Of a stretch of DNA of 64,000 nucleotides, positions 22,047 through 35,049 are shown piece after piece (position 1 is the stretch's first letter; each line of letters opens with the position of its first letter). The notes below the pieces were generated by a model that saw nothing but the letters and a program-made list of their open reading frames with translations, had not been told where the DNA came from and ran no database searches. Made by a program: the position numbers and the translations under genes. This DNA comes from Bradyrhizobium xenonodulans (lineage in GTDB: Bacteria > Pseudomonadota > Alphaproteobacteria > Rhizobiales > Xanthobacteraceae), in the NCBI RefSeq assembly GCF_027594865.1, contig NZ_CP089391.1, positions 5,548,501 through 5,612,500 of the forward strand, read 5' to 3'.

Positions 22047-22520
22047 CTACTTGCCCAGCACGACCTTGACGCCCAGCCAGACCGCTCCCATCAGACCGGT
22101 GGCGATCTTGTCGCTGAAAAATTTGAAGCCGTGGCCGAGGCCAAGGCCCGCGATCTTGCCTTCGATCAAACGCTTCGACGATTGCGCCAGCGTGCGCTGC
22201 GCCTCGCGAATGCAGACCGCGAGCGTGCCGCGCTCGGCCTGGCAGGTCTCGACCAGGAGCTCGCCGAAGAAATGCGATTTGCCCGAGCCGCGTCCGCCGT
22301 AAACGCCCTTGTAGCGCGCAGGCTTGAGCAGCGGCTCGAAAATCTTGGCGGTCGGGATTTTCAGGATCGACAATGGATACGCTCGCTCGCCCTCGGGCAG
22401 GCCGGTGCGCCTGCGCCACATCGCGGACCAGTCTTCGTTGTTTGGGGAGTCGGATTGTCCCTGCAGGGTTTGGCTCAGGTCAGGAGAGGCCGCATTTTCG
22501 GAGAATAACGGGCATTTCAC
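22047..22520 (-). pseudogene. Truncated phage terminase large subunit
   Basis: A 157-residue remnant of a phage terminase ATPase, the motor that packages DNA into heads. The N-terminal part is recognisable: KIFEPLLKPARYKGVYGG leads into Walker A GGRGSGKSHF (about residues 75-84), followed by the typical VCIREAQRTLAQSSKRLIE. A full terminase runs to 400 or more residues with Walker B and a nuclease domain. Here the match stops at SDKIAT, and a short unrelated hydrophobic tail (GLMGAVWLGVKVVLGK) runs into a stop, as expected after an internal deletion. It marks a decayed prophage and lies downstream of repeat copy 1. Confidence 0.8.
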
Positions 22521-22630
22521 CGGCGACGGGCGAGCGCTGTCCTATTGCAGCGACAAGGTGCAGCGCGCTTATGCCGCGCAACACCGGGCAAATAAGCAGA
22601 CCAGGAACTAGCCCAAGGATCATCGAAACA

Positions 22631-22718
22631 AAAACCCGCGGCCAATTGCTCGGCGCGGGCTGAACCAACTAAATCTCGATGATGGCATTCTGCCGGTGTT
22701 TTGCCCGACGTGTCAAAC
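22631..22718 (-). repeat. Interspersed hairpin-core repeat, copy 1
   Basis: Core 22676-22718 is the 43-bp sequence shared by the other copies (contains GTGTTTTGCCCGACGTGTCA on the plus strand). The adjoining GC hairpin (CCCGCG...CGCGGG) is at 22635-22659. On the minus strand the order is TTGACA, 18 bases, CAGAAT (variant base in this copy's leader), linker, hairpin, TTTTT. Confidence 0.85.
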
Positions 22719-22759
22719 GGCCAATCGCGGGCACCTCCAAAATCGACATCGCCGGCAAT

Positions 22760-23098
22760 TCAAGCGTCGGGAGCAACATCACCGCCTCCCGAGCTTCCCG
22801 GATACACGATGATGCGCTCGATCCGGTGAATCAATTCCAGCACGCCGTTTTCGTCGTTCTCGATCGGTTGCGCGGCCTTGCCCCAGCCGCGATCGAGGAT
22901 CGCGTTGGCCGCAGAGACACGGGCAGCGGGCGTTGCATCGTCGCTGCGCATGATGCCGACCAGCACCCTGAGTGCGGTCCTGGTGTGGCTGCGCGCAAGC
23001 GAGCGAATTTCGGTCAGGGTGCGGGCGCTGGACGTCTTCCTTCGCGCAGGGACGCGAACCGGCGCGCTGACGAGCGCGCATTCGATCTCATCGCTCAT
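22760..23098 (-). CDS. Prophage-type small helical protein (paralogue of 28006-28365)
   Basis: A 112-residue protein not matched to a named function. A basic N-terminal third is followed by a helical block (LARSHTRTALRVLVGIMRSD, then SAANAILDRGWGKAAQP) and an acidic linker before LIHRIERII. Proteins with this block often sit next to terminase genes in alphaproteobacterial prophages, and a small DNA-packaging or DUF5681-like role is a guess. A second copy lies at 28006-28365. Its ATG overlaps the stop of a 23-codon membrane peptide by four bases, so the two are translationally coupled. Confidence 0.7.
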   Translation of the reverse strand: MSDEIECALVSAPVRVPARRKTSSARTLTEIRSLARSHTRTALRVLVGIMRSDDATPAARVSAANAILDRGWGKAAQPIENDENGVLELIHRIERIIVYPGSSGGGDVAPDA

Positions 23099-23166
23099 GA
23101 AAAAGTCTCCCACAGCACGATCGCAACCAGGCCCGCGAGCGCGAGCGATATCAGATAAGCGGTCAT
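23095..23166 (-). CDS. Tiny single-span membrane peptide
   Basis: A 23-codon reading frame encoding MTAYLISLALAGLVAIVLW followed by four more residues, which is one hydrophobic helix. A strong RBS (CGAGGAG) lies five bases before the chosen ATG, with a second ATG directly upstream. The stop overlaps the start of the downstream prophage-type gene (ATGA). The RBS, the coupling and the transmembrane character argue that it is expressed; its role is unknown (holin-like or membrane regulator are guesses). Confidence 0.55.
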   Translation of the reverse strand: MTAYLISLALAGLVAIVLWETFS

Positions 23167-23420
23167 CATCTCTCCTCGAGAAAAAAATGCGCGGCAGATC
23201 GCGAGACGAAGCGCGATCGTTTCGGGCGCGAACCCTATCTCCGTGTCTCCCGGAGACCGCAGCGGCGTGGGCGAACAGCGCCCAGCGCCGCGAGGCCGGC
23301 ACGTTCGCGCGTGCACGGCCAGCAATGGTACGGACGACGGCGCGCCGATCGGCGCTCCAGGTTTGACGAGTGCGTGGCCGCAATGCGCCGCCGCCGTCCG
23401 ATTCTGGAATCGAGAACGAA

Positions 23421-23507
23421 AAAACCCGCGGCGGATGTCTCCGCGCGGGTGAACCAAACTCGTCTCGATGATGGCATTCTGCCGGTGTTTTGCCCGACGT
23501 GTCAAAC
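23421..23507 (-). repeat. Interspersed hairpin-core repeat, copy 2
   Basis: Core 23465-23507. Hairpin 23425-23449 has arms CCCGC(G)GCGGA and TCCGCGCGGG around a TGTC loop, with a T-run after it on the minus strand. It lies upstream of the membrane peptide and prophage-type gene on that strand. Confidence 0.88.
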
Positions 23508-23647
23508 GAACTTACGGGCCAGGCGAACGTTAGCCGATCAGAAGGATCGGCCAATGCCCCCTGAGACGACGTCACGAAAGACAAGCATGCCGAGAGCCAA
23601 ACCGCGCATCGACAAGACGCGCGACACGCACCGGCGGACGGCCCATG

Positions 23648-23690
23648 TCGATGATGCCATTCTGCCGGTGTTTTGCCCGACGTGTCAAAC
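23648..23690 (-). repeat. Interspersed repeat, copy 3 (core only)
   Basis: The 43-bp core is intact, including TTGACA on the minus strand, but no matching GC hairpin or T-run adjoins it. It lies about 80 bases upstream of the response-regulator gene. Confidence 0.85.
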
Positions 23691-23770
23691 ATCAGGGCAT
23701 GCGAGCAAGCCTTCGGAACTTACCCGAAGCGAGCTGCGTTTATTTCGACATCAGAAGGAACGTTCGCGCG

Positions 23771-24115
23771 ATGAGCCACACCGTCCTGGTTGTCGACGAC
23801 GACCCCGCTGTCCTCGGCGTGATCGTGGGCATGCTGGAAGATCTCGGCTGCCAAGTGGTCAGCGCCGAAAGCGGCCCGGATGCACTCGACCGGCTCGAGG
23901 AGAACCAGGACATCTCCATCCTGATCACGGACATCAACATGCCCGGCATGGACGGTCATGAACTGGCCGAGCTGGCAAAGCGCGTCCGCCCGGAGTTGAA
24001 GGTGCTCCAACTGTCGGGTCGCGAACCCCGGCGCGGCGGCCTGCCGATGATCAGAAAGCCGTTCTCGTTCGAGGAACTCGCCGACATCATGCAGCGAACC
24101 ACCGGCATTTGCTGA
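23771..24115 (+). CDS. Single-domain response regulator (CheY-like receiver)
   Basis: A 114-residue receiver domain with no output domain. The acidic pocket is VVDDDP (Asp9-Asp11), the phospho-acceptor is Asp54 in ITDINMPGMDG, the switch residue is Ser82 in LSGRE, and the conserved Lys is Lys96 in RKPF. It would be phosphorylated by a histidine kinase encoded elsewhere and pass the signal on by protein contact. A start further upstream is possible, but only the region from 23771 matches the family. It lies between repeat copies 3 and 4, each in reverse orientation, as a self-contained unit. Confidence 0.9.
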   Translation: MSHTVLVVDDDPAVLGVIVGMLEDLGCQVVSAESGPDALDRLEENQDISILITDINMPGMDGHELAELAKRVRPELKVLQLSGREPRRGGLPMIRKPFSFEELADIMQRTTGIC

Positions 24116-24131
24116 ACATCATGCCCAAAAG

Positions 24132-24219
24132 AAAACCCGCAGCGGGTTGCTCCCGCGCGGGCTGAACCAAACTCTTTCGATGATGCCATTCTGCCAGTGT
24201 TTTGCCCGACGTGTCAAAC
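24132..24219 (-). repeat. Interspersed hairpin-core repeat, copy 4
   Basis: Core 24177-24219, with one base change from copy 1 (CCAGTG for CCGGTG on the plus strand). Hairpin 24136-24161: CCCGC-A-GCGGG, loop TTGCT, CCCGC-GCGGG, followed on the minus strand by TTTTCTTTT. Just downstream of the response-regulator gene. Confidence 0.88.
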
Positions 24220-24345
24220 ACTGCCGGGCGCGAGACGAGGACATCCCTCCTCCCAGCTCAATATGTGGTGCGCGAGGGGCTTGCTTCAAGCCCCCGCTCC
24301 TGCCGTAGAACCCGCGACCCAGCCAACACATCGAGGGGTCACGAC

Positions 24346-25878
24346 ATGCCTGTATTGCTTCCGACGTCCCGTTCGCATCAGCAGGCTCGTCGCGCCGGCG
24401 CGAGCAACGCGGCGATGACCGATCAGTCCGTCGTGATCGCCGGCGGCGGTCCGACCGGCCTGATGCTTGCCGCCGAGCTGGCGCTCGCCAATGTCGACGT
24501 CGCCCTGGTCGAGCGCCGCGCCAACCAGGAGCTGGTCGAGACGCGCGCCGGCGGGTTGCACGCGCGGACCATCGAGATCCTCGATCAGCGCGGCGTCGCG
24601 GATCGCTTCCTGCGCGAAGGACAAATCGCCCAGCTTGCAGGCTTCGCCTGGACGCGGCTCGACATCAGCGACCTCCCGACCCGGCACCCCTACGGATTGG
24701 CGCTGCGGCAAAACCATATCGAGCGCATTCTGGCCGGCTGGGTCGAGGAGCTCGCGGTGCCGGTCCATCGGAGTTCCGAGGTCACGGGCTTCGCACAGGA
24801 CGAGACCGGCGTCGACGTGACGCTGTCGGGCGGCGAGACGTTGCGCGCCAATTATCTGGTCGGCTGCGACGGCGGCCGCAGCCTGGTGCGCAAGGCCGCG
24901 GGCATCGACTTCGCCGGCTTCGAGCCGACGCTGAGCAACCTCATGGCCGAGGTCGAGATGCGCGATGAGCCGGTCTTCGGTCTGCGCCACGACGCGCTCG
25001 GCTTTCACGGCCTCAGCAAGACCGAGAGCGGACGCGTGCTGGTGGTCGTGACGGAAGCAACGCTCGCGCGCGAGGGCGCACCGACCTTGCATGATCTCAG
25101 CGACGCGCTCGTCGCGGTCTACGGCACCGACTTCGGTGTGCAAAACTCCGCCTGGATCTCCCGCTTCACCGATGCGGCACGGCAGGCGGTCTCCTATCGC
25201 AGGGGACGCGTGCTGCTCGCCGGCGATGCCGCGCATATCCATCACTCCGTCGGCGGGCAAGGCCTCAACACCGGCGTGCAGGACGCCGTCAATCTCGGCT
25301 GGAAGCTGGCGCAGGTGGTCAAGGGCGTCTCGCCCGAGAGCCTGCTCGACACCTACCATTCCGAGCGTCATCCCGTCGCCGCGCGAGTGCTGCGCAACAC
25401 CATGGCGCAGATCGCCCTGCTCCGCCGCGGCGACGACGGCCTCAAGGCCGCGCGCGACAGCGTCGCCGAGCTGCTCGCCCTGGACGCGCCGCGACAGCGC
25501 TTCGGCGCGATGATGAGCGGGCTCGACATCCGCTACGATCTCGGCGAAGGCCACGCGCTGCTCGGCCGCCGCATGCCCGATCTCGATGTGATGGTCGAAG
25601 GACAGAAGCTAAAACTGTTCACGCTGCTGCATGGCGCGCGGGGCGTGCTGCTCAATTTCGGCAAGGCCGGCAGCATCGACGTCACACCCTGGGCCGATCG
25701 CATCGGCATCGTCGACGCCGCCTGTGACGAGGCATGGGCGCTTCCGGCCATCGGCGATGTCGCTGCGCCAGGCGCCGTGCTGGTGCGCCCCGACGGCCAC
25801 GTGGCATGGGTGGGCGACGAGAGCCAACACGGACTTGAGGATGCGCTGACGCGGTGGTTCGGACCCGCTGCAGCCTAG
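24346..25878 (+). CDS. FAD-dependent aromatic monooxygenase (PheA/TfdB family)
   Basis: A flavoprotein hydroxylase of about 510 residues related to phenol, polyketide and rifampicin monooxygenases. GxGxxG is in VVIAGGGPTGLML, DG in LVGCDGGRSLVRKAAG, and GD in VLLAGDAAHIHHSVGGQG. A C-terminal thioredoxin-like domain follows (DVMVEGQKLKLFTLLHG). The ATG at 24346 has GAGGGG nine bases upstream; the ATG at 24415, right before the Rossmann strand, is the alternative and has a weak RBS. It stands alone between repeat copies 4 and 5 inside the island, so it is probably an acquired detoxification or catabolic gene. Substrate unknown. Confidence 0.87.
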   Translation: MPVLLPTSRSHQQARRAGASNAAMTDQSVVIAGGGPTGLMLAAELALANVDVALVERRANQELVETRAGGLHARTIEILDQRGVADRFLREGQIAQLAGFAWTRLDISDLPTRHPYGLALRQNHIERILAGWVEELAVPVHRSSEVTGFAQDETGVDVTLSGGETLRANYLVGCDGGRSLVRKAAGIDFAGFEPTLSNLMAEVEMRDEPVFGLRHDALGFHGLSKTESGRVLVVVTEATLAREGAPTLHDLSDALVAVYGTDFGVQNSAWISRFTDAARQAVSYRRGRVLLAGDAAHIHHSVGGQGLNTGVQDAVNLGWKLAQVVKGVSPESLLDTYHSERHPVAARVLRNTMAQIALLRRGDDGLKAARDSVAELLALDAPRQRFGAMMSGLDIRYDLGEGHALLGRRMPDLDVMVEGQKLKLFTLLHGARGVLLNFGKAGSIDVTPWADRIGIVDAACDEAWALPAIGDVAAPGAVLVRPDGHVAWVGDESQHGLEDALTRWFGPAAA

Positions 25879-25909
25879 CACACGAATGTCTCACGCACCT
25901 CGAAACAAG

Positions 25910-25991
25910 AAGGCCCGCAGCATCCCGCGGGCTTGATCCAAACTTCTTTCGATGATGCCATTCTGCCGGTGTTTTGCCCGACGAGTCAAAC
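25910..25991 (-). repeat. Interspersed hairpin-core repeat, copy 5
   Basis: Core 25949-25991 with GAGTC in place of GTGTC on the plus strand, which changes TTGACA to TTGACT in the minus-strand promoter-like box. Hairpin GCCCGC/GCGGGC at 25913-25932, then CTTCTTGTTT on the minus strand. Just downstream of the FAD monooxygenase gene. Confidence 0.85.
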
Positions 25992-26068
25992 CTGCCCGCT
26001 GGACTTCCGCGTCGGATTCAACCAAACTGCAAGTTGTATTGTAGAAACAGTAAAATTTGAGTTTGCCC

Positions 26069-27013
26069 ATGATTATACCCGGCGCTCCTGTTCCTCCCCC
26101 TCTTCCTCCTGCCGATGCTCCCACTCCTGCTTCAAGCAGCATCTCTGGCGGCATGGTGGCTTTGGCGTTGGCCGTAGCTGTCTTACTTGTTAGCGGATTT
26201 ACGGCTGCTGTTTATTATGGGTCGGAAATTCAAGCGTGGCTAAATAAACACGGCTCGACGGAGTCGGCTTGGAACACCCCTGCTGGAGAAGAACTAATTA
26301 GAGCAAACCACCTGCACTTCCTAATTGCCTCAACAATCAGTCAATGCTTCCCCGGCGTTGATTTAGCTTGGGGCAGGGACGGCCCACCGTCCAACGTTTC
26401 AATTCCACTGATCCTGGGACTTCAGCCAAGCGGCGAGATTCAATGGCAATCAACGAAGTCGGTGGGTAAGACTGCCACAATTAAACTGACGAATTACCAG
26501 CGAACAGTACTCGCCCTAAGCAACGGGACAACATTGCTGCGTATGCAGTTGGCGAGCACGGCTGCAGACACTAAATTCACGAGAAACTTGCTTCAGACGC
26601 TGATCGTTGCTGTGAGTGCGCTTACGACGATCCTCGTCACGATGAAGTCAATAATTGACACGGCAGCGTCGAGCAGGACCAGGACCATGCTTGGCATCTT
26701 TGCAATAATCGTGGCCGCCGCTGGGACCGCTTTGGCGAGCCTCAATACGGCCGTGACTCCCGGTGAATCCTTCGCCAAAGCGCAACATGCCTTGACACAA
26801 GCACGACAGGTTCAACTCGATCTGAATCTTCTTGTCGCCAGCGACAAGAGAATTTGCAAAGAATTCGATCCGGACAAAGCCAACGACCCGCTGGCGAAGA
26901 AGATGGCGGAACTGTCCAACAAGGTGAAAGAAATTGTGGCCTCTTCGGAAACAACTGGCACAACTTCGGGAGGCGGATCTCAGACTGGGCAGTCATCTCC
27001 CTCTCACCCCTAA
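26069..27013 (+). CDS. Three-span membrane protein with SLATT-like C-terminal half
   Basis: A protein of about 314 residues that I do not recognise with certainty. A Pro-rich start is followed by a first membrane helix (about residues 29-50), a periplasmic or cytosolic segment of about 120 residues, and then two closely spaced helices (about 174-195 and 206-226) and a charged helical tail ending in a Gly/Ser/Thr-rich stretch. The paired helices plus coiled-coil-prone tail resemble SLATT/DUF4231 effectors, membrane proteins found in nucleotide-signalling defence loci, but no sensor or cyclase gene adjoins it. Base composition is more A/T-rich than the flanks, suggesting recent acquisition. A TTG four codons upstream is an alternative start. 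Confidence 0.6.
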   Translation: MIIPGAPVPPPLPPADAPTPASSSISGGMVALALAVAVLLVSGFTAAVYYGSEIQAWLNKHGSTESAWNTPAGEELIRANHLHFLIASTISQCFPGVDLAWGRDGPPSNVSIPLILGLQPSGEIQWQSTKSVGKTATIKLTNYQRTVLALSNGTTLLRMQLASTAADTKFTRNLLQTLIVAVSALTTILVTMKSIIDTAASSRTRTMLGIFAIIVAAAGTALASLNTAVTPGESFAKAQHALTQARQVQLDLNLLVASDKRICKEFDPDKANDPLAKKMAELSNKVKEIVASSETTGTTSGGGSQTGQSSPSHP

Positions 27014-27167
27014 ACTTCGTTCCGACTCTTCATGGGTCCACCGAAGCCAACGGGCCAAATCAGAGTCCCTCTTGGACGTACAGGCCCAAGAAGCCGCGAT
27101 TTCGTTGGAACGCTGCATCATGGCAATAATTGAGAAGGCGGGGCGAACTCTCTGGAGGAGGAAGGCG

Positions 27168-27446
27168 ATGCGTTCGATTTTGACGTTGAGCGTTTTGATA
27201 AGCCTGTGCGCGGTTGCGAACGCGGCAACCGTGCATCATGGGCACCACCGGCACGCGGTGCATCGTTCGCATCATCACATGATGTACCCATCAGGTCGAG
27301 CCTCGGGTTTTGCCTATGCGCCACGTCAATACTACCGGTCCGCACCATATTACCAAGGCTACAGCGAGCCATATTATGGTGCTTCGCAGGGCTACGCGCC
27401 TGGCGAGAAGCAGAGATTTCTTGAGAGCGTGCTCAACCCTTATTAG
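27168..27446 (+). CDS. Small secreted His/Tyr-rich protein
   Basis: A 92-residue protein with a clear signal peptide (MRSILTLSVLISLCAVANAA) after a strong RBS (GGAGGAGGAAGG). The mature part begins with a His-rich block (HHGHHRHAVHRSHHH), then a Tyr/Pro/Gly-rich stretch, and ends in LESVLNPY. It may bind metal through the His cluster or be a cell-surface protein; no known domain is seen. It stands alone between the SLATT-like gene and the CsbD gene. Confidence 0.7.
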   Translation: MRSILTLSVLISLCAVANAATVHHGHHRHAVHRSHHHMMYPSGRASGFAYAPRQYYRSAPYYQGYSEPYYGASQGYAPGEKQRFLESVLNPY

Positions 27447-27633
27447 GGCGCGTACTCATAAATCGTCGGCGATGTTCGCTTCGCGCCGCGGCCAACCAAA
27501 TTTGTGCAACTGCAACAAATGTCGCGATGGCCAAATTCAGAAATGCGTACGCCATGTCCGGATTTGGTCTCCGAGGAACGACTACGCTGGTCCTCTGTTG
27601 GTCAATTCATTCGGACAGCAAAGGAACACGATC

Positions 27634-27825
27634 ATGGACCGTGAACACGTTAAAGGCGCGGCCGACAAGGCCAAGGGCGCAATCAAAGAGGGCGCCGGTA
27701 AGCTTACTGGCGACAAAGATATGGAGGCCGAAGGCAAGATCGATAAAGCTAAAGGGGCCGCCCACAACGCGGCGGGCGACGTGAAGGATGCAGCACGGGA
27801 TGCCGCTGACGCCTTGAAAAAATAG
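27634..27825 (+). CDS. CsbD family stress protein
   Basis: A 63-residue hydrophilic protein with the CsbD signature: DREHVKGAADKAKGAIKEG, then TGDKDMEAEGKIDKAKG and Ala/Lys-rich heptads to the end. CsbD proteins are general stress-induced proteins of unknown mechanism, widespread in soil proteobacteria. A purine-rich RBS (AAAGGAA) lies upstream. The gene is monocistronic in appearance, with 190 bases of gene-free sequence on each side. Identity is firm; the function is not known for the family. Confidence 0.9.
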   Translation: MDREHVKGAADKAKGAIKEGAGKLTGDKDMEAEGKIDKAKGAAHNAAGDVKDAARDAADALKK

Positions 27826-28005
27826 CGAAGACGTAAGACCAAACTGCCGCCTCCGGGCGGCCATTTCTTTCGCATCGGGCTCTTTCACTGGGGTCCACGA
27901 CCTAGTTTGTGCGGCGGGATCGCATTCGGCTCGAACTCTTGTTCTCAAGCAATGCGTGATCGGGATTGTCAGGCGCCATTGAGGGCCCCGTCCCCGGCGG
28001 CAGCA

Positions 28006-28365
28006 TCACTTGTGAAGTCTCAGGAGGGTCGGTTGCGTCGTCTTCAACGGTGAACATCGGATCATCGGGTGCACGATCACGCGTTCGATTCGATGCAGCA
28101 ATTCGAGCGGCGCCTTGTCGGTTGCCAAGGGCTGCACCGGCTTGCCCCATCCTCTGTCGAGAATAGCGTTTGCTGCGGCAACGCAGGCAAACGCATTCGT
28201 TGTCTCTCGCTGCATGATCGAAACAAGCACATTGAGCGCGGCTTCGGTCTTGGTTCTCGCCAACAACTCAATGTCCGCCGTCGTGGGAGCTTTAACATCT
28301 TCGCTGGCCACGCGCTGTGCAATCGGCTGATACAACTCAACTCGTCTGTTCACCCTGCTGGTCAT
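28006..28365 (-). CDS. Prophage-type small helical protein (paralogue of 22760-23098)
   Basis: A 119-residue protein sharing its central block with the protein at 22760-23098: both have AANAILDRGWGK followed by a short linker and HRIERVIVHP or HRIERIIVYP. The N-terminus (MTSRVNRRVELYQPIAQRV) and the C-terminal tail differ. The function is unknown; prophage origin is inferred from the terminase fragment beside the paralogue. It lies directly downstream, on the minus strand, of repeat copy 6, in the same relative place as its paralogue behind copy 2, so repeat and gene may have been duplicated together. Confidence 0.7.
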   Translation of the reverse strand: MTSRVNRRVELYQPIAQRVASEDVKAPTTADIELLARTKTEAALNVLVSIMQRETTNAFACVAAANAILDRGWGKPVQPLATDKAPLELLHRIERVIVHPMIRCSPLKTTQPTLLRLHK

Positions 28366-28400
28366 TCTGCATTCTCCAAGTAAACGCAGAAATTCAGGAA

Positions 28401-28491
28401 ACAAAAAGCCCGGTGCGGATTGCTCCGCGCGGGCCGAACCAAACACTTTCGATGATGCCATTCCGCCGGTGTTTTGCCCGACGTGTCAAAC
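28401..28491 (-). repeat. Interspersed hairpin-core repeat, copy 6
   Basis: Core 28449-28491 with CCGCC for CTGCC on the plus strand. Hairpin 28408-28434 has arms GCCCGGTGCGGA and TCCGCGCGGGC around TTGC, followed on the minus strand by TTTTTGTTT. Confidence 0.88.
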
Positions 28492-28532
28492 GACTGGTCG
28501 CGAACGATACATGCACGGCGTGGCATTCAGTT

Positions 28533-30179
28533 TTACTCCGAACGAAGTAGTGGCCGTATCCAGCGCGAGAACCACTCCTCAACGTCATTGCGTGGACTGC
28601 CAGGACCATCCACTCCGAAGATCGGTGGCGGAACGAGGTAGCTCGGCTCATCCGCGAATATGCTTATCGGCTTGCTCGTCTGCGGTGGCCGACCGTCAGC
28701 GGTCGGCACGGTCCAGTTGCCAAACCGCTCGTTGAATTCCGTGGAAGGCAGATACGGCACTGGCGCGCTCCCCGATGTGAAGACGCTACCCGCGTTCGAC
28801 TCGTTGACGCGGGTAAGGCGCCGGGCCTCTTCGGGCGCGACTGCTCGAGGTGCAGGAGTGTCCGGCACTTTGTCCACGTTCGCGGGCTGGGCAGGCACAG
28901 TGCCAGTTGGCGTATCGGTCCAATTTCCGAAGCGATCGGTAAAGGTAAGGGCCCGCTCGGTTTTCGAGCCAAGAACCCTGCTCTCGCTTTGCGGTGATCC
29001 AGACTGTTCGAGAAAATTGCCCCAACCATTACCAAGGGGTTGAGCAGGAGGGCTAACCGCGAACGGGTTGTAAGGAGCCGCGCCGTTGAAAAATACGCTG
29101 CTGTCTGCAACCATGTTATTGCTGGAACTGGTTGCCGAGAAAGCGGGTCGGGTGAGGGCGGCAGTAGCCAAGCCTGAGAGCAAGGCAGCGCCAAGGCTTT
29201 GTGTTCCAGGTGCCATCATGGCGCCCACACCAAGCACACCTGCTCCCATCAGCAACGCAGAACCTTGATCAGGAGGTGCCTGCGGTCCAAGCACCTGCGA
29301 TCGATCAGAGAGATACGTGAGGGGCTGGCCTACCTCTGAATGGAATTGCGATACTTGTGGCTCCGGCGGCATGGCCACGCTCGGAGGCACTTGCATCAGA
29401 CCTTGCCAATCTGAGGGAGGGACCGGAAAGCCTGGCAGTCCATAGGTGAGAAGCGGATTACTTGGTGTAAACCCTTCCGGCTTGTTCAATCCCTCAAGAG
29501 AAGGCGGAATGAAACCGGGCAAGCGAGCGTCGACAAAGGGAGGAACGAGGCCCGGAAGTCCGGGAACAGGGCCGACAGGGGTGAATTGCAGCGAGATCGG
29601 GGAGCCGCCCTTCTTGAATCGGTTTAAAAGTTGGATCCTTTCTGCCATGCTGAGAACGCTGGTCGGTGACAGAAGAGGGAAATCCAAGGCCGCGTCCGGC
29701 TGGCCGGCGTTGGAGAACTGGTCGATCGTCTCCTGCATCTGCTGTATTTGCGTTTGATTGTCGGCGGCATATTTTCTCCAGTTTCCGAACCATTGCTCAT
29801 TCGCCGCATTTGCCTTTTCTAACGTCATCTCCCTAGGGGTGTTGGCAAATAGATGGCCGTTCGCCAACGCGTACTTGGCAGCAGCCACAAGTGCGTTCAC
29901 ATCCGAAGCTATCTCATCCCGCTCACGCGTATCACCAGCAAGAGCCGCAGCGTACCTTGGAGATTCTTGGACCTCCTTTAGATACTCGCAGAATCCCTTG
30001 TAGTACTTTCCGAGATGCCCACCCGTATGGGGGCTCGCACTTAGATCGGTTGCCAGCCTCTGAGTCGGGGGTAGAGACATACGATTCCTGATCGCGTCAA
30101 GATTGAACCTATCAGCCAAAAAATCGATGACCGGGTGGCCGGCGAAATGCTTGGGAAAGACGTGATGATTTGGAAACAT
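28533..30179 (-). CDS. AHH-nuclease toxin-like protein with Pro-rich body and FGNW repeats
   Basis: A 548-residue protein. Residues 1-70 look like an AHH-type HNH nuclease domain: NHHVFPKHFAGHP at the start, and HTGGHLGKYY at 51-60. The rest is Pro-rich (about 200-300) with a hydrophobic Gly/Ala stretch (about 307-342). An FGNW-type motif recurs: WFGNWR (130), GWGNF (385), DRFGNWT (415), ERFGNWT (484), WFSRW (536). In polymorphic toxins the nuclease is normally C-terminal, so the order is reversed here. AGGAAG lies ten bases before the ATG; the frame is open for about 38 codons upstream without a start. An Imm11-type gene lies just upstream on the same strand. Nuclease activity is inferred. 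Confidence 0.65.
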   Translation of the reverse strand: MFPNHHVFPKHFAGHPVIDFLADRFNLDAIRNRMSLPPTQRLATDLSASPHTGGHLGKYYKGFCEYLKEVQESPRYAAALAGDTRERDEIASDVNALVAAAKYALANGHLFANTPREMTLEKANAANEQWFGNWRKYAADNQTQIQQMQETIDQFSNAGQPDAALDFPLLSPTSVLSMAERIQLLNRFKKGGSPISLQFTPVGPVPGLPGLVPPFVDARLPGFIPPSLEGLNKPEGFTPSNPLLTYGLPGFPVPPSDWQGLMQVPPSVAMPPEPQVSQFHSEVGQPLTYLSDRSQVLGPQAPPDQGSALLMGAGVLGVGAMMAPGTQSLGAALLSGLATAALTRPAFSATSSSNNMVADSSVFFNGAAPYNPFAVSPPAQPLGNGWGNFLEQSGSPQSESRVLGSKTERALTFTDRFGNWTDTPTGTVPAQPANVDKVPDTPAPRAVAPEEARRLTRVNESNAGSVFTSGSAPVPYLPSTEFNERFGNWTVPTADGRPPQTSKPISIFADEPSYLVPPPIFGVDGPGSPRNDVEEWFSRWIRPLLRSE

Positions 30180-30532
30180 GAAACCGCTACTTCCTGCCGT
30201 ACGCCGGCATCCGAGCTGCTCCTGAGTTGCAGCCGGTGTTTCTGATTTTGAATGCTTTTGAGTGGCCAGCCGCGATTGAAGCCGGCGTGCTGCGCGTCAT
30301 ATCGGGACGGCCGAACCAGAAGACCTTGCTCCTCGGCACATATCCGCTGTCGACGTCGGCGTCTGCTGGACCACATCGGGACAGCAGCAATTTGGGCTAC
30401 AAATGAGATCAGGGATTCCACCGGCGCTGACGTCGCGCAAGCGGACTTCGAACGCGCAATTTTCGCCGCAGCGAATGGCTGAAGCCAACGCGACCTTAGA
30501 CGAGCCTCAACGCTAGACTGCTACGATCGGGA
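30180..30532. other. Gene-free stretch between toxin-like and Imm11-type genes
   Basis: About 350 bases with no convincing gene on either strand. On the minus strand the toxin frame stays open for about 38 codons upstream of its ATG but has no start codon, so this could be the eroded 5' end of a longer toxin gene. No repeat or hairpin stands out. Confidence 0.4.
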
Positions 30533-31156
30533 TCACCCCCAATTGACGTAGGGATTTCCGAATCTCAAACCTCTCAGCCCGGCAGCCTTACAGGCGTCCT
30601 TCATTGCTTGATCGCAAACAACTCGATTTAAAAAGCGGGCTCGGAAAATATGAGCCGAACCGATGGCCTCTTCTCGAAAGACGAAGCTGGAAGTCGCCAT
30701 GTTATCGTACCGCCTGAAATCTGTCCCATCATCCAGGATTACGACGTTCGACTTTTCCTCGTCGATGACATCGAGCTGGCGCACGATGTCGCAAAGCCAG
30801 TAAACAGGTGCACCCCCACTCAGTGACCGCGTTTCGCACCTCAGGAACGCCACACCGTCTCTATCGACGGCCTCCAGAACGTTCTTCATCCGATCAGACA
30901 CGAGCCAAAAGTCGTGAAACAGCTCCCAATCGACCGGCGGCCGCCCGAGAGATTTGTCGATCAGCAACCGTGGCGTTTCGGCGAGCGGAGGAAAGCTTCG
31001 CTTGCCCCGTGGTGAATGGAGGGGGACCCGGCCGGCGCCAAGGGCGACCAGATTCTCCATTTCCCAACCGGGGGGCTTGTGAATTCTGAAATCCAGTCCG
31101 ACTCTGTAGAGTTTCGGCGCCTTTTTCTTTCGCCTTTCATTACCGGACGCGGCCAT
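30533..31156 (-). CDS. Imm11-family (DUF1629) immunity-type protein
   Basis: A 207-residue protein resembling the imm11/DUF1629 family of immunity proteins, which bind and block a cognate polymorphic toxin. Family-like blocks are FHDFWLVSDRMKNVLEAVD, VYWLCDIVRQLDVIDEE and, near the C-terminus, IFRARFLNRVVCD followed by ACKAAGLRGLRFGNP. The gene is more A/T-rich than the flanks and lies upstream of the AHH-nuclease gene on the same strand, 353 bases away, which fits an immunity-toxin pair even though immunity genes usually follow the toxin. It lies downstream of repeat copy 7. A cytoplasmic role is expected because no signal peptide is seen. Confidence 0.75.
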   Translation of the reverse strand: MAASGNERRKKKAPKLYRVGLDFRIHKPPGWEMENLVALGAGRVPLHSPRGKRSFPPLAETPRLLIDKSLGRPPVDWELFHDFWLVSDRMKNVLEAVDRDGVAFLRCETRSLSGGAPVYWLCDIVRQLDVIDEEKSNVVILDDGTDFRRYDNMATSSFVFREEAIGSAHIFRARFLNRVVCDQAMKDACKAAGLRGLRFGNPYVNWG

Positions 31157-31235
31157 TGATTATCGCTCCCTTCGCCTATCCGCTCGGATCATCGCATTTA
31201 TCGCGCCGAAGGCAGAACCAATTCCAACGCCAACA

Positions 31236-31321
31236 ATAAAGCCCGCGGCATCCGCCGCGGGCTTTATCCGAACTGATCTCGATGATGCCATTCTGCCAGT
31301 GTTTTGCCCGACGTGTCAAAC
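31236..31321 (-). repeat. Interspersed hairpin-core repeat, copy 7
   Basis: Core 31279-31321. Hairpin 31236-31267 is a perfect 14-bp stem (ATAAAGCCCGCGGC / GCCGCGGGCTTTAT) with a 4-base loop. It lies between the DUF4261 gene and the Imm11-type gene, so on the minus strand it could also end DUF4261 transcripts. Confidence 0.88.
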
Positions 31322-31370
31322 AATCGATCTGAACGGAATGCTCGCAACCTCTTTCGAGATCCTCCCACGC

Positions 31371-32144
31371 TCACACCAGATCGTCGCTACAGAAAAACAC
31401 GGGCATGCCACCGAACTGATCGGAGTTCTTGTGTCGAACCGTGAAGCGCTCGCGCGCGCTGCCGCCAAACGTGTCACCGTTTTTGACCACAGGGCCGTGC
31501 TCGACCAGATAGACGGCTAGACCGTCCACCTTGCTGACGAGTGTTGGAAGGGGCAGCTTGTGGGTCTCGAACTGAATTTCACGTTCGCTGAAGGCCGAAA
31601 GTCCCATCGTCACTGCGCCAATGCCCGACTCTGATCGGAACGGGAGTATGTCGATCCACAGCGAGACGGGATAGTCGGGGTATGGCGCAAACGATCGGCT
31701 GGACAAGTCCAGCCAAAGATCCGCGGATCGTGCGACCTTGCCATTCCAGACCACGGCGCAACATTGCGGCATGGTCGCGATCAACGCGCCGATGACGGCC
31801 GTCGTCAGACGAGCGGTCGGCACTGCTTGCTGGTTTTGGCCGAGCACCGAAACGATCAGATGCCCCCGGTGGCGCGCCGCGACCGCCTTGGCCTGCGGCC
31901 ATATCGTGGACGCGCGCGACCACAGGCCGGGATCCTCCGGAATGGGTGCCGGCATCGACATCACCGCCACAAGTTCGTTGCCGCAACGAATGAGCGGCGA
32001 ACCCTGGCGAGCTCCTTCCTCGCCGCCTCCTTCCACCTCCATCGGCAGTTCGGGATCTCGCGCGCGGATAGCCGCGGCGAGCGCGACCATGTCGGGCGTT
32101 GCGGGAGATTCCAACAAGACCAGGGCGAGAAAAGACTTACTCAT
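31371..32144 (-). CDS. DUF4261 domain-containing protein
   Basis: A 257-residue cytoplasmic protein. The C-terminal part matches my recollection of DUF4261: LWIDILPFRSESGIGAVTMG, then LSAFSEREIQFE, and near the end a loop with GPVVKNGDTFGGS. The N-terminal half has alternating hydrophobic strands (FLALVLLESPATPD, ELVAVMSMPAPIPED) and a central segment WPQAKAVAARHRGHLIVSV. The function of the family is unknown; members occur near polymorphic toxin and immunity genes, as here, where the Imm11 and AHH genes follow on the same strand. A role as an accessory immunity protein is only a guess. Confidence 0.7.
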   Translation of the reverse strand: MSKSFLALVLLESPATPDMVALAAAIRARDPELPMEVEGGGEEGARQGSPLIRCGNELVAVMSMPAPIPEDPGLWSRASTIWPQAKAVAARHRGHLIVSVLGQNQQAVPTARLTTAVIGALIATMPQCCAVVWNGKVARSADLWLDLSSRSFAPYPDYPVSLWIDILPFRSESGIGAVTMGLSAFSEREIQFETHKLPLPTLVSKVDGLAVYLVEHGPVVKNGDTFGGSARERFTVRHKNSDQFGGMPVFFCSDDLV

Positions 32145-32330
32145 CGGTCGCCTCAGACGTTACAGGCGTGACTGATGATCAATCACGGCTCGCTCACAGG
32201 TTGAGCTTTTGCAGCATAGAACAAAACAGGAACAATGTCAACGCGCGTTCGCCGCGCACTTCGCTCTTCCGGCGTTCTCCAGATTGCGCGAAAGTCCCGC
32301 ATGCCCTGCCAATATCCCGAACCCACACCC

Positions 32331-32795
32331 ATGTTCTCAATCCACGTCGACGACCTCACCTCTGAGCCGACCCGCCGCCTGCTCGCGCTGCACCTCGCCG
32401 GCATGCACGCGAGCTCGCCGCCCGGCAGCGTGTTCGCGCTCGACCTCTCCGGGCTCACCGCGCCCGGCGTCACCGTCTGGTCGGTTCGCGAGGGAAGCGA
32501 GGTGGTCGGCATCGGCGCGCTGAAGGAGTTCGGCGACGGCAGCGCGGAGGTGAAGTCGATGCGGACCCATCCCGATCATCTGCGTCGCGGCGTCGCGGCG
32601 CTGCTGCTGGACCACATCGCGCGCGAGGCCCGCGCGCGCGGCCTGAAGCGCCTCAGTCTCGAGACCGGAAGCGGACCTGCGTTCGAGCCGGCGCTGGCGC
32701 TGTATCGCAAATATGGCTTCGTGAACGGCGACGCCTTCGCCGACTACCGGCCGAGTGCCTTCAACCAGTTTCTGCACCTGAAGCTCCCGGCTTGA
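32331..32795 (+). CDS. GNAT family N-acetyltransferase
   Basis: A 154-residue acetyltransferase. The acetyl-CoA pyrophosphate loop is VKSMRTHPDHLRRGVAALLL (the RxxGxA/G motif), followed by GLKRLSLETGSGPAFEPALALY and RKYGFVNGDAF, which are the usual late motifs of small GNAT enzymes of the YjgM/PhnO type. The ATG at MFSIHVDD is preferred; an upstream ATG at 32235 would add 32 residues without similarity. It appears monocistronic and marks the return to ordinary, GC-rich chromosome after the island. Substrate unknown. Confidence 0.88.
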   Translation: MFSIHVDDLTSEPTRRLLALHLAGMHASSPPGSVFALDLSGLTAPGVTVWSVREGSEVVGIGALKEFGDGSAEVKSMRTHPDHLRRGVAALLLDHIAREARARGLKRLSLETGSGPAFEPALALYRKYGFVNGDAFADYRPSAFNQFLHLKLPA

Positions 32796-33031
32796 TCGTA
32801 TCGCATGACCTCGTCGCGATCGCGCTCGGGGCAGGACATGAGTAATCGGCTCAAAAGGCTCAAGCCTCTCCCGGCCGGCCGCTGAAGGATTCTTCGAGGC
32901 ACCCAACAAATGATGGCGACTCGGCGCCGGCACAGGCGTAGGGTTCGATCATCACCGCAAGGTCCGTGGCATTCACCGGTGATGAGAACGCCGATTGCGC
33001 TCCCGCCCTGCTCGCATGAGGGAGTAGCGCC

Positions 33032-33232
33032 ATGCTGAAACGTCGTCGTTTCAAGCAAACCAAGACACTTCAGGAGCGGCTGGCCGACGAGGCCGCACGG
33101 CTTCGCACGGAAGCCGGCGCGCTGGCGCCCGGACGCCGCCGCGAGATATTGCTGCGCCGGGCGCGGCAGGACGAGACGGCCATGCAGATCGAGGCCTGGC
33201 TGCATTCGCCCGGCCTGAGGGCGCCGACATGA
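33032..33232 (+). CDS. Small basic helical protein
   Basis: A 66-residue Arg-rich helical protein (LQERLADEAARLRTEAG, then PGRRREILLRRARQDETAMQ) with a GGGAG RBS seven bases upstream. Its stop overlaps the start of the next small gene by four bases (ATGA), which supports translation of both. Proteins of this kind are common and uncharacterised in Bradyrhizobium. No function can be assigned. Confidence 0.75.
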   Translation: MLKRRRFKQTKTLQERLADEAARLRTEAGALAPGRRREILLRRARQDETAMQIEAWLHSPGLRAPT

Positions 33233-33423
33233 CCCAGCAATACCGCGCCTATCTGATCGGGCAGAACGGCGTCTTCCAGTCCGCCGAAGCGTTCGAGGCC
33301 CAGTCCGATGCATCCGCCCTCGAGGTCGCTCAGCAGTACACGCGCCGCGGCGATGTCGAGGTATGGCAGCTCAGCCGCAAGATCGGCCTCGTAAAACGCA
33401 ACGAGCGGACCGGCATCGCCTGA
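33229..33423 (+). CDS. Small conserved-type protein
   Basis: A 64-residue protein coupled to the previous gene by a four-base overlap. The pattern (YRAYLIGQNGVFQSAEAFEA, then ASALEVAQQY, then VEVWQLSRKIG) is that of short rhizobial proteins predicted to form a small alpha/beta fold; their role is unknown. The two-gene unit has no other partner in view. Confidence 0.75.
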   Translation: MTQQYRAYLIGQNGVFQSAEAFEAQSDASALEVAQQYTRRGDVEVWQLSRKIGLVKRNERTGIA

Positions 33424-33445
33424 CGGGCAATTGTGCAGCCCGCGC

Positions 33446-33706
33446 TTACGCCGCCTGCGGCACCTGCGCCGCCGTCCGCTCGACCCGTCCTTCCAGCATC
33501 GCGATCGAGGTGCGCAGATTGTCCCTGCGCGCGCGCAAGGTCAGGGCAAGCATGGAATAAGTGGGGCTGCCGGGATCGTCATTCCGGGCATTGCGCTCCT
33601 CGTCGGCGATGTCGCGCTCCAGCATCTGGAGCCGCCAGCGCAGGTCGGAAATCAGGGCATGGAGCTGCAAGGACGCGGACGCTTCGAAACGGGACGTTGA
33701 CTGCAT
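33446..33706 (-). CDS. Small coiled-coil protein
   Basis: An 86-residue protein, mostly helical with heptad-like spacing: LHALISDLRWRLQMLERDIA, then LRARRDNLRTSIAMLEGRV. It converges with the two-gene unit before it (23-base gap). No known domain; a structural or regulatory role through dimerisation is only an inference from the coiled coil. Confidence 0.65.
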   Translation of the reverse strand: MQSTSRFEASASLQLHALISDLRWRLQMLERDIADEERNARNDDPGSPTYSMLALTLRARRDNLRTSIAMLEGRVERTAAQVPQAA

Positions 33707-33829
33707 GGGATCGCCTCAATCTGGAGCAGCCCGAATGGCCGGGCCGGGATTGAAAAGCTGTGCAGCAAGAGGGATGCCAATCGGGTCGTACCACCGTTCG
33801 GGCGAACGAAGCGATACCAGGAACCAGCC

Positions 33830-34194
33830 TTACTCTTCCGCGAGCTTCGCCTCGATATAGGCATCCACCGTTTCGGCAAAGGAGCGCTGCACGCCGACCG
33901 CGGTGCCGTGCTGGTCGAGCGCGTCGCGCTGGAGCACGCGCAGGCCGCGCCCGCGGAAGCTGGCCGGCGCCGTGTTCAGATATTGATCGATGGCGCCCTT
34001 GGCGAGCGGGATGGCCTTCGGATCTCCCCTTGCGATCAACAGACGCAAGAGGCTCTGGCATTCGGCCAAGCCGGGCATGGGATCAGCCTTCAGCCGCGCG
34101 AGGATTTCGGCCTCGGCCGCTTGACCGGCTGGGTGTGGGTGCCGAACAGCGCCAGCAGAAACGCGACTTCTTCCTTCGAACCGATCTGGATCAT
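33830..34194 (-). pseudogene. Small gene interrupted by a probable frameshift
   Basis: With a good RBS (AAGGGAG) an ATG at 34194 opens a 34-codon frame (MIQIGSKEEVAFLLALFG...) that stops soon after PVKRPRPKSSRG. In the next frame, without a gap, a well-formed sequence continues (QAAEAEILARLKADP, then GLAECQSLLRLLIARGDP) to a stop at 33830. A single-base change near 34130 would join them into one protein of about 120 residues. Alternatively the second part starts on its own at 34078 (82 residues). No function assigned. Confidence 0.5.
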
Positions 34195-34322
34195 GATGAT
34201 CTCCCTTTCGCTCCGTTGGTCGGGACGAGCGGGCGCGCCGTTCAGGACAATCGGGTTTCAGGAGTGTTTCAGGCGTGTTTCGTCGGGGCGATGAAGCCGG
34301 CGCCGTCTTGGGACCCAGCATT

Positions 34323-34365
34323 CCGATACTGCCATCATGCCCCTGTTTTGCCCGACGCCGCAAAA
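34323..34365 (-). repeat. Diverged copy 8 of the interspersed repeat
   Basis: Keeps CTGTTTTGCCCGACG at 34342-34356 and a GCCATCATG-like block in place of the usual leader. TTGACA is changed to TTTGCGGC on the minus strand and no hairpin follows, so this copy is probably inactive. Confidence 0.6.
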
Positions 34366-34479
34366 TTTATTCAAATGCAGCAAGACGGATTCGGCGGAAC
34401 GAAATTCCTTCGCGCCATGCTGGGACATGTCCCTTGCGAGTCCATTGCGAGGACGCCTGGAGGAGTTGGAGAGACCACG

Positions 34480-34665
34480 ATGTACTACGTCGCCGCCGCA
34501 TTGCTGGTGCTGTCGGGACTGTTCTACTCGGCGAGCCATCACGAGCTCGGCCAGTTCGGCGTGAATGTCTGCTCCTATGGCAGCACGTTCTGCGACAGTC
34601 CGGTGATCGTCTTCACCGGCGGCGCGCTGGCCGCCGCCTGGGGCATGTTCGTCAGCATCAAGTAA
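34480..34665 (+). CDS. Small membrane protein
   Basis: A 61-residue protein with two hydrophobic helices (YYVAAALLVLSGLFYSA and VIVFTGGALAAAWGMFVSI) separated by a short loop that contains two Cys (NVCSYGSTFCDSP). Two helices with a Cys pair between them suggest a disulfide on the periplasmic side. GGAGAGA precedes the ATG. It is one of a run of tiny genes at 33-35.3 kb; function unknown. Confidence 0.7.
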   Translation: MYYVAAALLVLSGLFYSASHHELGQFGVNVCSYGSTFCDSPVIVFTGGALAAAWGMFVSIK

Positions 34666-34875: not shown

Positions 34876-35049
34876 CTATGCCGACAATTCCTTGCGGACG
34901 GCCGCGGCCGAATTGCCGACCTTGTCGACGGCCTTCTGCAGCTCCTCCTTCGTTACGCCGAGCGCGTGCGTCCAGTACTTGACCTCGAAGGCCTCGTGCA
35001 TGTTGATCTTGCTGCGGTCCGGCTGCTCGCGCTTCGTCAGATTGTCCAT
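34876..35049 (-). CDS. DUF3606 family protein
   Basis: A 57-residue protein matching DUF3606: DRSKINMHEAFEVKYWTHAL, then GVTKEELQKAVDKVGNSAAA. Members are short, predicted helical proteins of unknown role, frequent in rhizobia and other soil proteobacteria. GGAGGAG lies seven bases before the ATG. It is part of the group of tiny genes here. Confidence 0.85.
   Translation of the reverse strand: MDNLTKREQPDRSKINMHEAFEVKYWTHALGVTKEELQKAVDKVGNSAAAVRKELSA

What the first reader, a model, noticed from the sequence alone, without database searches (positions are those of the whole stretch)
22631..34365. Eight-copy, one-orientation repeat spread across an accessory island
A 43-bp core recurs at 22676, 23465, 23648, 24177, 25949, 28449 and 31279, nearly identical apart from one- or two-base changes, plus a diverged copy at 34323. 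All point the same way and no copy was noticed outside this island. Copies lie between otherwise unrelated cargo: a prophage gene, response regulator, FAD monooxygenase, SLATT-like protein, toxin-like and Imm11 genes. A repeat marking module boundaries could be a recombination or insertion platform, or the remains of a mobile non-autonomous element.
Basis: seen in the sequence. Interest (0 to 1): 0.82.

Follow-up and report, generated by a model that had tools for sequence, protein, structure and literature searches.

The report
Repeated promoter-terminator mini-genes in prophage scar
The repeat is the promoter half of what looks like a tiny gene for an RNA of about 50 letters, present in several same-facing copies at a changeable spot next to an old virus remnant in this soil bacterium and its relatives; what it does is not known.

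Summary
In detail: seven near-identical copies and one diverged, all facing one way. Two corrections: the core is not island-only (its 14-bp heart occurs at 46 genome places, 38 outside the window), and six of the eight copies are ~90-bp units. Read on the minus strand, a unit is TTGACA-N18-CAGAAT, then ~50 nt ending at an intrinsic terminator.

A covariance model of the unit matches 59 of 60 Bradyrhizobium genomes, 47 of them at E<=1e-16, beyond what the core alone scores. In 33 multi-copy loci all 148 aligned units share one orientation per locus; the hairpin shows compensatory changes. The site is an eroded prophage late region: 30 of 31 terminase-small-like ORFs have a codirectional core upstream. 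Cargo lies between units; six relatives lack one 2.5-kb module and have a single hybrid unit there. Units persist where terminase genes are gone, and one is conserved at a host site in 16 genomes.

Best reading: a multicopy family of terminator-ended mini-genes whose copies also serve as recombination points. Main rival: an antitermination-controlled late promoter. No expression data here.

The parts
22626..22717 (-). unit c1: core promoter plus hairpin/T-run; its downstream gene is the truncated terminase-large-like ORF
   Evidence: repeat; R1 92.6 bits; fold z -4.11 for the transcribed part
23416..23506 (-). unit c2: -35 TTGACA from 23505, -10 CAGAAT ending 23476, hairpin and T-run; orthologue of the unit next to the terminase-small-like gene in many relatives
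   Evidence: R1 109.2 bits; promoter-like site; fold z -4.97; shared block 23118-23506 in relatives
23608..23691 (-). copy c3: perfect core (23645-23691), weak irregular hairpin only
   Evidence: R1 53.3 bits; fold z -0.91; hairpin -10.3 kcal/mol, irregular
24127..24218 (-). unit c4
   Evidence: R1 104.6 bits; promoter-like and terminator-like sites; fold z -2.61
25905..25990 (-). unit c5, low-coordinate border of the 2.5-kb variable module
   Evidence: R1 75.1 bits; promoter-like and terminator-like sites
   Evidence: ORFs; the CsbD name is recalled, from no call
28400..28490 (-). unit c6, high-coordinate border of the variable module
   Evidence: R1 101.5 bits; fold z -1.08. Not listed by the promoter scan (its -10 is CGGAAT)
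31233..31320 (-). unit c7
   Evidence: R1 80.4 bits; promoter-like site; fold z -3.46
34320..34366 (-). diverged core c8, no terminator
   Evidence: 72% identity; R1 21.7 bits; no hairpin found
22760..23098 (-). terminase-small-subunit-like gene downstream of unit c2
   Evidence: phrog_15261 1.2e-13 (function listed as unknown); a phage terminase small subunit (E 2e-3); core upstream in 30 of 31 homologues
22047..22520 (-). truncated terminase-large-like ORF fused to the C-terminal tail of a small late gene
   Evidence: PF04466 4.2e-07; phrog_3717 1e-11; separate pieces in L253
28006..28365 (-). second terminase-small-like gene, directly downstream of unit c6
   Evidence: similarity to the first by reading; tblastn totals

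Best explanation
Each full copy is a mini transcription unit on the minus strand: a promoter (TTGACA, 18-bp spacer, CANANT) whose spacer carries a near-invariant 14-bp site (CGTCGGGCAAA[A/T]CA), then a transcript of about 50 nt that ends at an intrinsic terminator. The units form a Bradyrhizobium-wide multicopy family. In many genomes they stand as a one-way array at the edge of an old prophage late region (terminase genes). Copies multiply and cargo modules come and go by recombination between units, which are direct repeats. I take the short, terminator-ended RNA to be the product under selection (a family of sibling small RNAs under one shared regulator). Shown by computation: anatomy, conservation, orientation, the shared locus, a unit-bounded indel. 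Inferred: transcription, a protein on the spacer site, RNA function, and homologous recombination as the cause of the indel.
For: 6 of 10 promoter-like sites in 15 kb are copies, against 3.0 expected in all. A terminator follows 123 of 149 cores in array loci, against 7 of 146 and 0 of 148 at shifted points and 2 of 38 dispersed cores. Hairpin: 9 of 11 pairs with two-sided changes; 96 such cells in the whole structure against 28.2 in shuffles. Model hits in 59 of 60 genus genomes, 47 at E<=1e-16. One orientation per locus: 148 of 148 aligned units in 33 loci. L222 has five tandem units 166 bp apart with no gene between. Units stay intact where terminase genes are lost (L231, L089). At a host site without terminase, pairwise identity over 16 genomes is 0.96 (-35 and spacer), 0.89 (-10 to start), 0.69 (linker), 0.88 (hairpin), against 0.47 and 0.39 in nearby DNA. 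Unit-bounded indel in six of seven relatives examined.
Against: No transcription data. Over the genus the unpaired part of the transcript is weakly conserved (0.56 bits per position against 1.76 and 1.32), so no fixed pairing seed is seen. In other clades the -10 often ends in C (CATATC, CATAAC), poor for sigma-70. The generic terminator scan is not enriched (17 found, 14.2 expected) and lists only 3 of the 6 hairpins. Fold z-scores of c5 and c6 are weak (-1.74, -1.08). 38 dispersed cores lack the terminator in 36 cases. Alignment A3 was fitted to the model, which favours its pairs. Genomes below E 1e-16 (13 of 60) may hold the core only.
Confidence: 0.5

Rival explanations
1. Antitermination-controlled late promoter. 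The unit is the start of the prophage packaging operon: RNA polymerase stops at the nearby terminator unless an antiterminator loads at the site between -35 and -10, as described for phage Q, AlpA and GafZ.
For: Same anatomy: an element between -35 and -10 and a terminator just downstream (passages of PMC6606751, PMC7969949 and PMC11150451). 30 of 31 terminase-small-like ORFs in genus loci and 22 of 27 in viral contigs have the nearest core upstream and codirectional, none opposite; all 5 viral misses lie at contig edges. Codirectional units lie among terminase, portal and head genes in L264.
Against: The host-site unit has no conserved operon downstream: no downstream flank of L240 matches any of the 15 orthologues. 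Units persist without terminase genes (L231, L089). The terminase homologues are largely one orthologous locus, so the counts are not independent. 20 of 149 units have a convergent gene ending within 43 nt downstream. No PF06530 Q protein in this genome; other antiterminator families were not sought. A pause element at +2 to +7 is not evident by eye.
Confidence: 0.27
2. The repeat is primarily a recombination platform (cassette-type site) and its promoter and terminator look is incidental.
For: Unit-bounded indel; flanks of units joined less often than other intergenic points (13% against 28%); modules in other order in L091, L093 and L096.
Against: Conserved hexamer spacing and compensatory hairpin changes; conserved at a host site over 16 genomes; no PF00589 gene within about 760 kb. 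The joined/apart test uses related genomes and one hotspot, so its counts are not independent, and the RR module next to c3/c4 does not show a clean one-unit empty site.
Confidence: 0.13
3. REP-like or MITE-like genomic repeat without function of its own.
For: 38 further cores over the chromosome, 34 of 38 core loci and others preceded by a second dispersed motif.
Against: Only 2 of 38 dispersed cores carry the terminator. Orthologous retention with sharp conservation borders over 16 genomes points to selection. The Br-REP1 and Br-REP2 consensus strings printed in PMC5082802 (section read) do not contain the core.
Confidence: 0.1

Closest known systems
Promoters of processive antiterminators: phage Q (PR'-tR'), Pseudomonas AlpA, Caulobacter GafZ
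   Same: A conserved element between -35 and -10 and an intrinsic terminator close downstream; phage late, lysis or GTA genes beyond (passages of PMC6606751, PMC7969949, PMC11150451).
   Different: Here the unit is repeated several times in one array, also exists without the operon, and no antiterminator gene is known; Q's PF06530 was not found in this genome.
Multicopy sibling small-RNA families (LhrC, Qrr: recalled); BjsR5, 6, 7 and 10 of B. japonicum, with 2 to 4 imperfect copies (PMC5082802, sections read)
   Same: Short genus-restricted RNAs in several similar copies with own promoters.
   Different: BjsR sequences are in supplements that I could not read, so identity with this family is neither shown nor excluded. 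The BjsR copies listed in its Table 1 are mostly far apart and on both strands.
Integron cassette arrays (recalled)
   Same: Same-facing repeats between changing gene modules.
   Different: No PF00589 gene near; cargo genes lie in both directions; the repeat has promoter and terminator anatomy.
Gene transfer agents and domesticated prophages
   Same: A phage packaging and head gene cluster near the same host flank in several genomes.
   Different: Here mostly eroded: the head gene is in 10 of 60 genomes and not in this one; the RcGTA marker PF13547 is absent in this genome.

Membership tests
Q/AlpA/GafZ-type antitermination promoter | loading element between -35 and -10 | tested here: met
   14-bp spacer block at 1.8-2.0 bits at most positions over 67 array copies. 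By position only; binding is not shown.
Q/AlpA/GafZ-type antitermination promoter | intrinsic terminator just downstream | tested here: met
   123 of 149 array cores; helix counts
Q/AlpA/GafZ-type antitermination promoter | operon downstream that needs read-through | tested here: inconclusive
   terminase-small-like ORF downstream in 30 of 31, but units persist without it and the host-site unit has no shared downstream gene
Q/AlpA/GafZ-type antitermination promoter | a cognate antiterminator | tested here: inconclusive
   PF06530 absent from this genome; no other family searched
small-RNA gene family | own promoter and terminator, conserved over species | tested here: met
small-RNA gene family | a detected transcript | not testable with these tools
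   no expression data held
small-RNA gene family | conserved unpaired pairing region | tested here: inconclusive
   0.56 bits per position over the genus; 0.69 identity against 0.47 and 0.39 nearby in one orthologue set
known Rfam family | match to a covariance model | tested here: not met
   none in the window at gathering score; none up to E=1 for 22500-24300
integron cassette array | linked integron-type integrase | tested here: not met
   11 PF00589 matches in the genome, none within about 760 kb
MITE | terminal inverted repeats and target-site duplication | not tested
   inverted repeats and duplications were not searched for
RcGTA-type gene transfer agent | GTA_TIM protein | tested here: not met
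   PF13547: 0 matches in this genome

The most novel reading that the evidence does not exclude
The arrays are a further Q/AlpA/GafZ-like antitermination system in a new layout: many loading promoters in series feeding a fixed-locus phage packaging cluster of Bradyrhizobium, with the same spacer site reused at some 38 dispersed host promoters, so that one factor would switch on packaging genes, short RNAs and host genes together. After loss of the phage genes the units remain as RNA genes and as recombination joints for cargo.
Probability: 0.2. Interest if true: 0.82.

Novelty: new variant of a known kind. Interest (0 to 1): 0.6.

Why it matters
It turns an unexplained repeat into a testable transcription unit with a predicted start, end and regulatory site in a crop-symbiont genus, and it links a promoter-terminator array to the turnover of cargo (toxin-like, immunity and other genes) at one hotspot. 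If a factor binds the spacer site, it would expose either a new small-RNA regulon or a further case of processive antitermination. It would also help explain how prophage scars become gene-exchange sites.

Tried and rejected
Island-only repeat: rejected for the core, kept in part for the full unit: the 7 own-genome matches with E below about 2e-16 are 6 in the island and 1 elsewhere.

The core read as a short peptide on the plus strand (the ORFs at 22679 and 23645 start in or at copies): considered only from the sequence and set aside, since the strongly conserved unit runs the other way with a terminator; no codon test was made.

Known RNA families: none; in 20 other own-genome loci only two tRNAs. 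The letters of the repeats in print: five strings gave no paper. Plasmid records: no match.

Leader or attenuator of the next gene: of 149 units the next downstream gene is codirectional in 104, opposite in 40 and not seen in 5, so a common leader role for all is unlikely.

Orientation or spacing role of the second dispersed motif: spacing is not more even than chance (P 0.165), though the smallest gap is larger than chance (P 0.0002); sampled GC skew was too noisy to place replichores.

Module map by tblastx: useful for order, but the FAD and Nramp labels recur spuriously, so I rest the indel claim and the order changes on the blastn. Of seven relatives aligned, L089 does not show the clean hybrid (downstream 0.45 to c5, 0.32 to c6).
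Full report
The observation. The repeat finder gives eight copies of a 47-nt core in one orientation at the stated places, seven at 91-100% and one at 72% to the reference. Shuffled sequence gives no such matches. In the window all eight lie in the island. In the whole genome (one contig of 8,276,659 bases) the exact 14-mer TGTTTTGCCCGACG occurs 46 times; the 24-mer around it with up to two mismatches occurs 22 times. It is not met for the full unit described next.

What the repeat is. Six copies and one more at C1:2548109-2548197 (L018) share a unit of about 90 bp. On the minus strand it begins TTTGACACGTCGGGCAAAACACYGGCAGAATGGCATCATCGA and goes on to a G+C-rich hairpin with a T-run. The promoter scan lists ten sites in 15 kb against 3.0 expected; six of the ten are copies. 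The terminator scan in the same call is not enriched (17 against 14.2) and lists only three of the six hairpins, so I tested termination directly: 123 of 149 cores in array loci have a hairpin and T-run within about 75 nt, against 7 of 146 and 0 of 148 at points shifted by +400 and -400, and 2 of 38 dispersed cores of this genome. That test counts 7 of 8 window copies, but the hit of c3 is weak and irregular, so I count six. Fold z-scores for the six are -4.11, -4.97, -2.61, -1.74, -1.08 and -3.46.

Conservation. A covariance model R1 built from 23 units has a match at E<=1e-5 in 59 of 60 genomes of the genus. Core-only copies reach up to 45 bits, so weak matches may be core only; 47 of the 60 have a best match at E<=1e-16 (counted from the genome table), a level that no core-only copy of this genome reaches. 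In this genome the seven matches above that level are six in the island and L018. The exact pattern TTGACNCGTCGGGCAAAWCA was found in 4 of 150 genomes drawn over the order: the four of this genus, none of the other 146. An exact 19-mer was found in 15 of 60 relatives, all among the 36 of the genus.

Structure and orientation. Over 36 loci R1 gives 156 matches. Of the 150 best, 148 lie in 33 multi-copy loci, and in each locus all have one strand; the six others listed agree. On 149 distinct rows, 9 of 11 pairs of the terminator helix show changes on both sides; the whole structure has 96 such cells against 28.2 in shuffles. The alignment was fitted to the model, which favours this result. Information per position is 1.76 bits for -35 and spacer, 1.32 for the rest of the core, 0.56 for the linker and 1.32 for the hairpin. 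Within the 67 array copies the 14-bp spacer block is near invariant. In some clades the -10 ends in C, which weakens a plain sigma-70 reading.

Where the arrays sit. Every one of the 20 further loci L220-L239 shares blocks with the window, most often the terminase-like blocks, the block at 34478-34664, the CoA-transferase or the Nramp gene. In several viral-like contigs terminase, portal and head genes follow (PHROG matches: terminase large, portal and major head protein). The head gene is in 10 of 60 genus genomes and not in this one. The window's terminase-large-like ORF (22047-22520) is a truncated fusion: its two parts are separate in L253. Terminase-small-like ORFs have the nearest core upstream and codirectional in 30 of 31 cases in genus loci and 22 of 27 in viral contigs (the 5 misses lie at contig edges), none opposite. 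These are largely one orthologous locus, so the cases are not independent. L222 holds five units 166 bp apart with no gene between; I read it as near the state before cargo came in, an inference.

Modules. Between c5 and c6 the window has a 2.5-kb stretch (start to start). In L086, L092, L094, L232, L233 and L234 one unit stands there; its upstream flank resembles that of c6 (0.49-0.85 against 0.25-0.34 to c5) and its downstream flank that of c5 (0.67-0.86 against 0.25-0.31 to c6); a seventh, L089, is not clean. Such a hybrid is what a crossover between two direct repeats, or insertion at one, leaves. The toxin/Imm11/DUF4261 block stands before the FAD block in L091, L093 and L096 but after it in the window. 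Over pairs of genomes, flanks of units are joined in 256 of 1986 informative comparisons (13%), other intergenic points in 377 of 1361 (28%), random points in 603 of 1135 (53%). The genomes are related and the hotspot is one, so this is support and not proof. No tyrosine-recombinase gene is within about 760 kb.

Units without phage genes. L231 and L089 lack the terminase blocks yet have units of 86.9-110.5 and 59.0-106.7 bits among their best. Of 19 usable single-site regions fetched, 15 share the upstream flank of the L018 unit and none shares its downstream flank. Over these 16 genomes identity is 0.96, 0.89, 0.69 and 0.88 for spacer, start, linker and hairpin, against 0.47 just upstream and 0.39 downstream. 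The unit is thus kept at a host site with no shared gene after it. This is my main reason to prefer a mini-gene with its own product over a phage late promoter.

Rivals. The anatomy equals that of Q, AlpA and GafZ promoters, where the loading element lies between -35 and -10 and terminators follow (passages of PMC6606751, PMC7969949, PMC11150451). AlpA's motif is printed as GGGACGN(5)GGTA; the core here reads GGGCAAN(6)GGCA, a likeness that I only note. PF06530 is absent from this genome; no other antiterminator family was searched.

Print. Searches for five strings of the repeats found no paper. PMC5082802 (abstract and sections 12, 15 and 18 read) describes BjsR1-10 and two REP elements of B. 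japonicum; its sequences are in supplements that I could not read, so BjsR5-7 may or may not be this family. PMC10127595 (passages) reports phage particles of a B. japonicum strain whose reads cover the host genome evenly, which its authors liken to gene transfer agents; no link to this locus was tested. The other papers were seen as listings only.

Noticed in passing
genome-wide; e.g. L009-L085, none in the window: A second dispersed element, CAACCCCATGCACAGTAG: 62 exact and 4 one-mismatch copies in this genome. It often stands shortly after a gene end and in about half of the cases 55-105 nt before the core. The strand is strongly biased near the contig ends (17 to 2 in the first 2 Mb, 0 to 9 in 7-8.3 Mb).
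   Followed up: partly
L264, L314, L301, L252, L253: A prophage late region with a portal gene read as two ORFs in each, with 57 bp to over 1 kb between the parts.
   Followed up: no
22047-22520: Terminase-large N-part fused to the tail of a small late gene; similar fusions occur in L222, L224, L237 and L232.
   Followed up: partly
34889-35049: A 161-bp block 93-94% identical in L087 and L236, higher than its surroundings; no tRNA or Rfam match there.
   Followed up: no
28533-31156: A 548-aa toxin-like ORF without a Pfam match beside an Imm11 immunity gene (PF07791, 1.3e-42).
   Followed up: no
L120, L121, L125, L151, L155: Records titled Frankia sp. RB7 carry the exact Bradyrhizobium-type core; the label or the assembly may be wrong.
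   Followed up: no
L012 and L013: tRNA genes within about 250 bp of dispersed cores.
   Followed up: no
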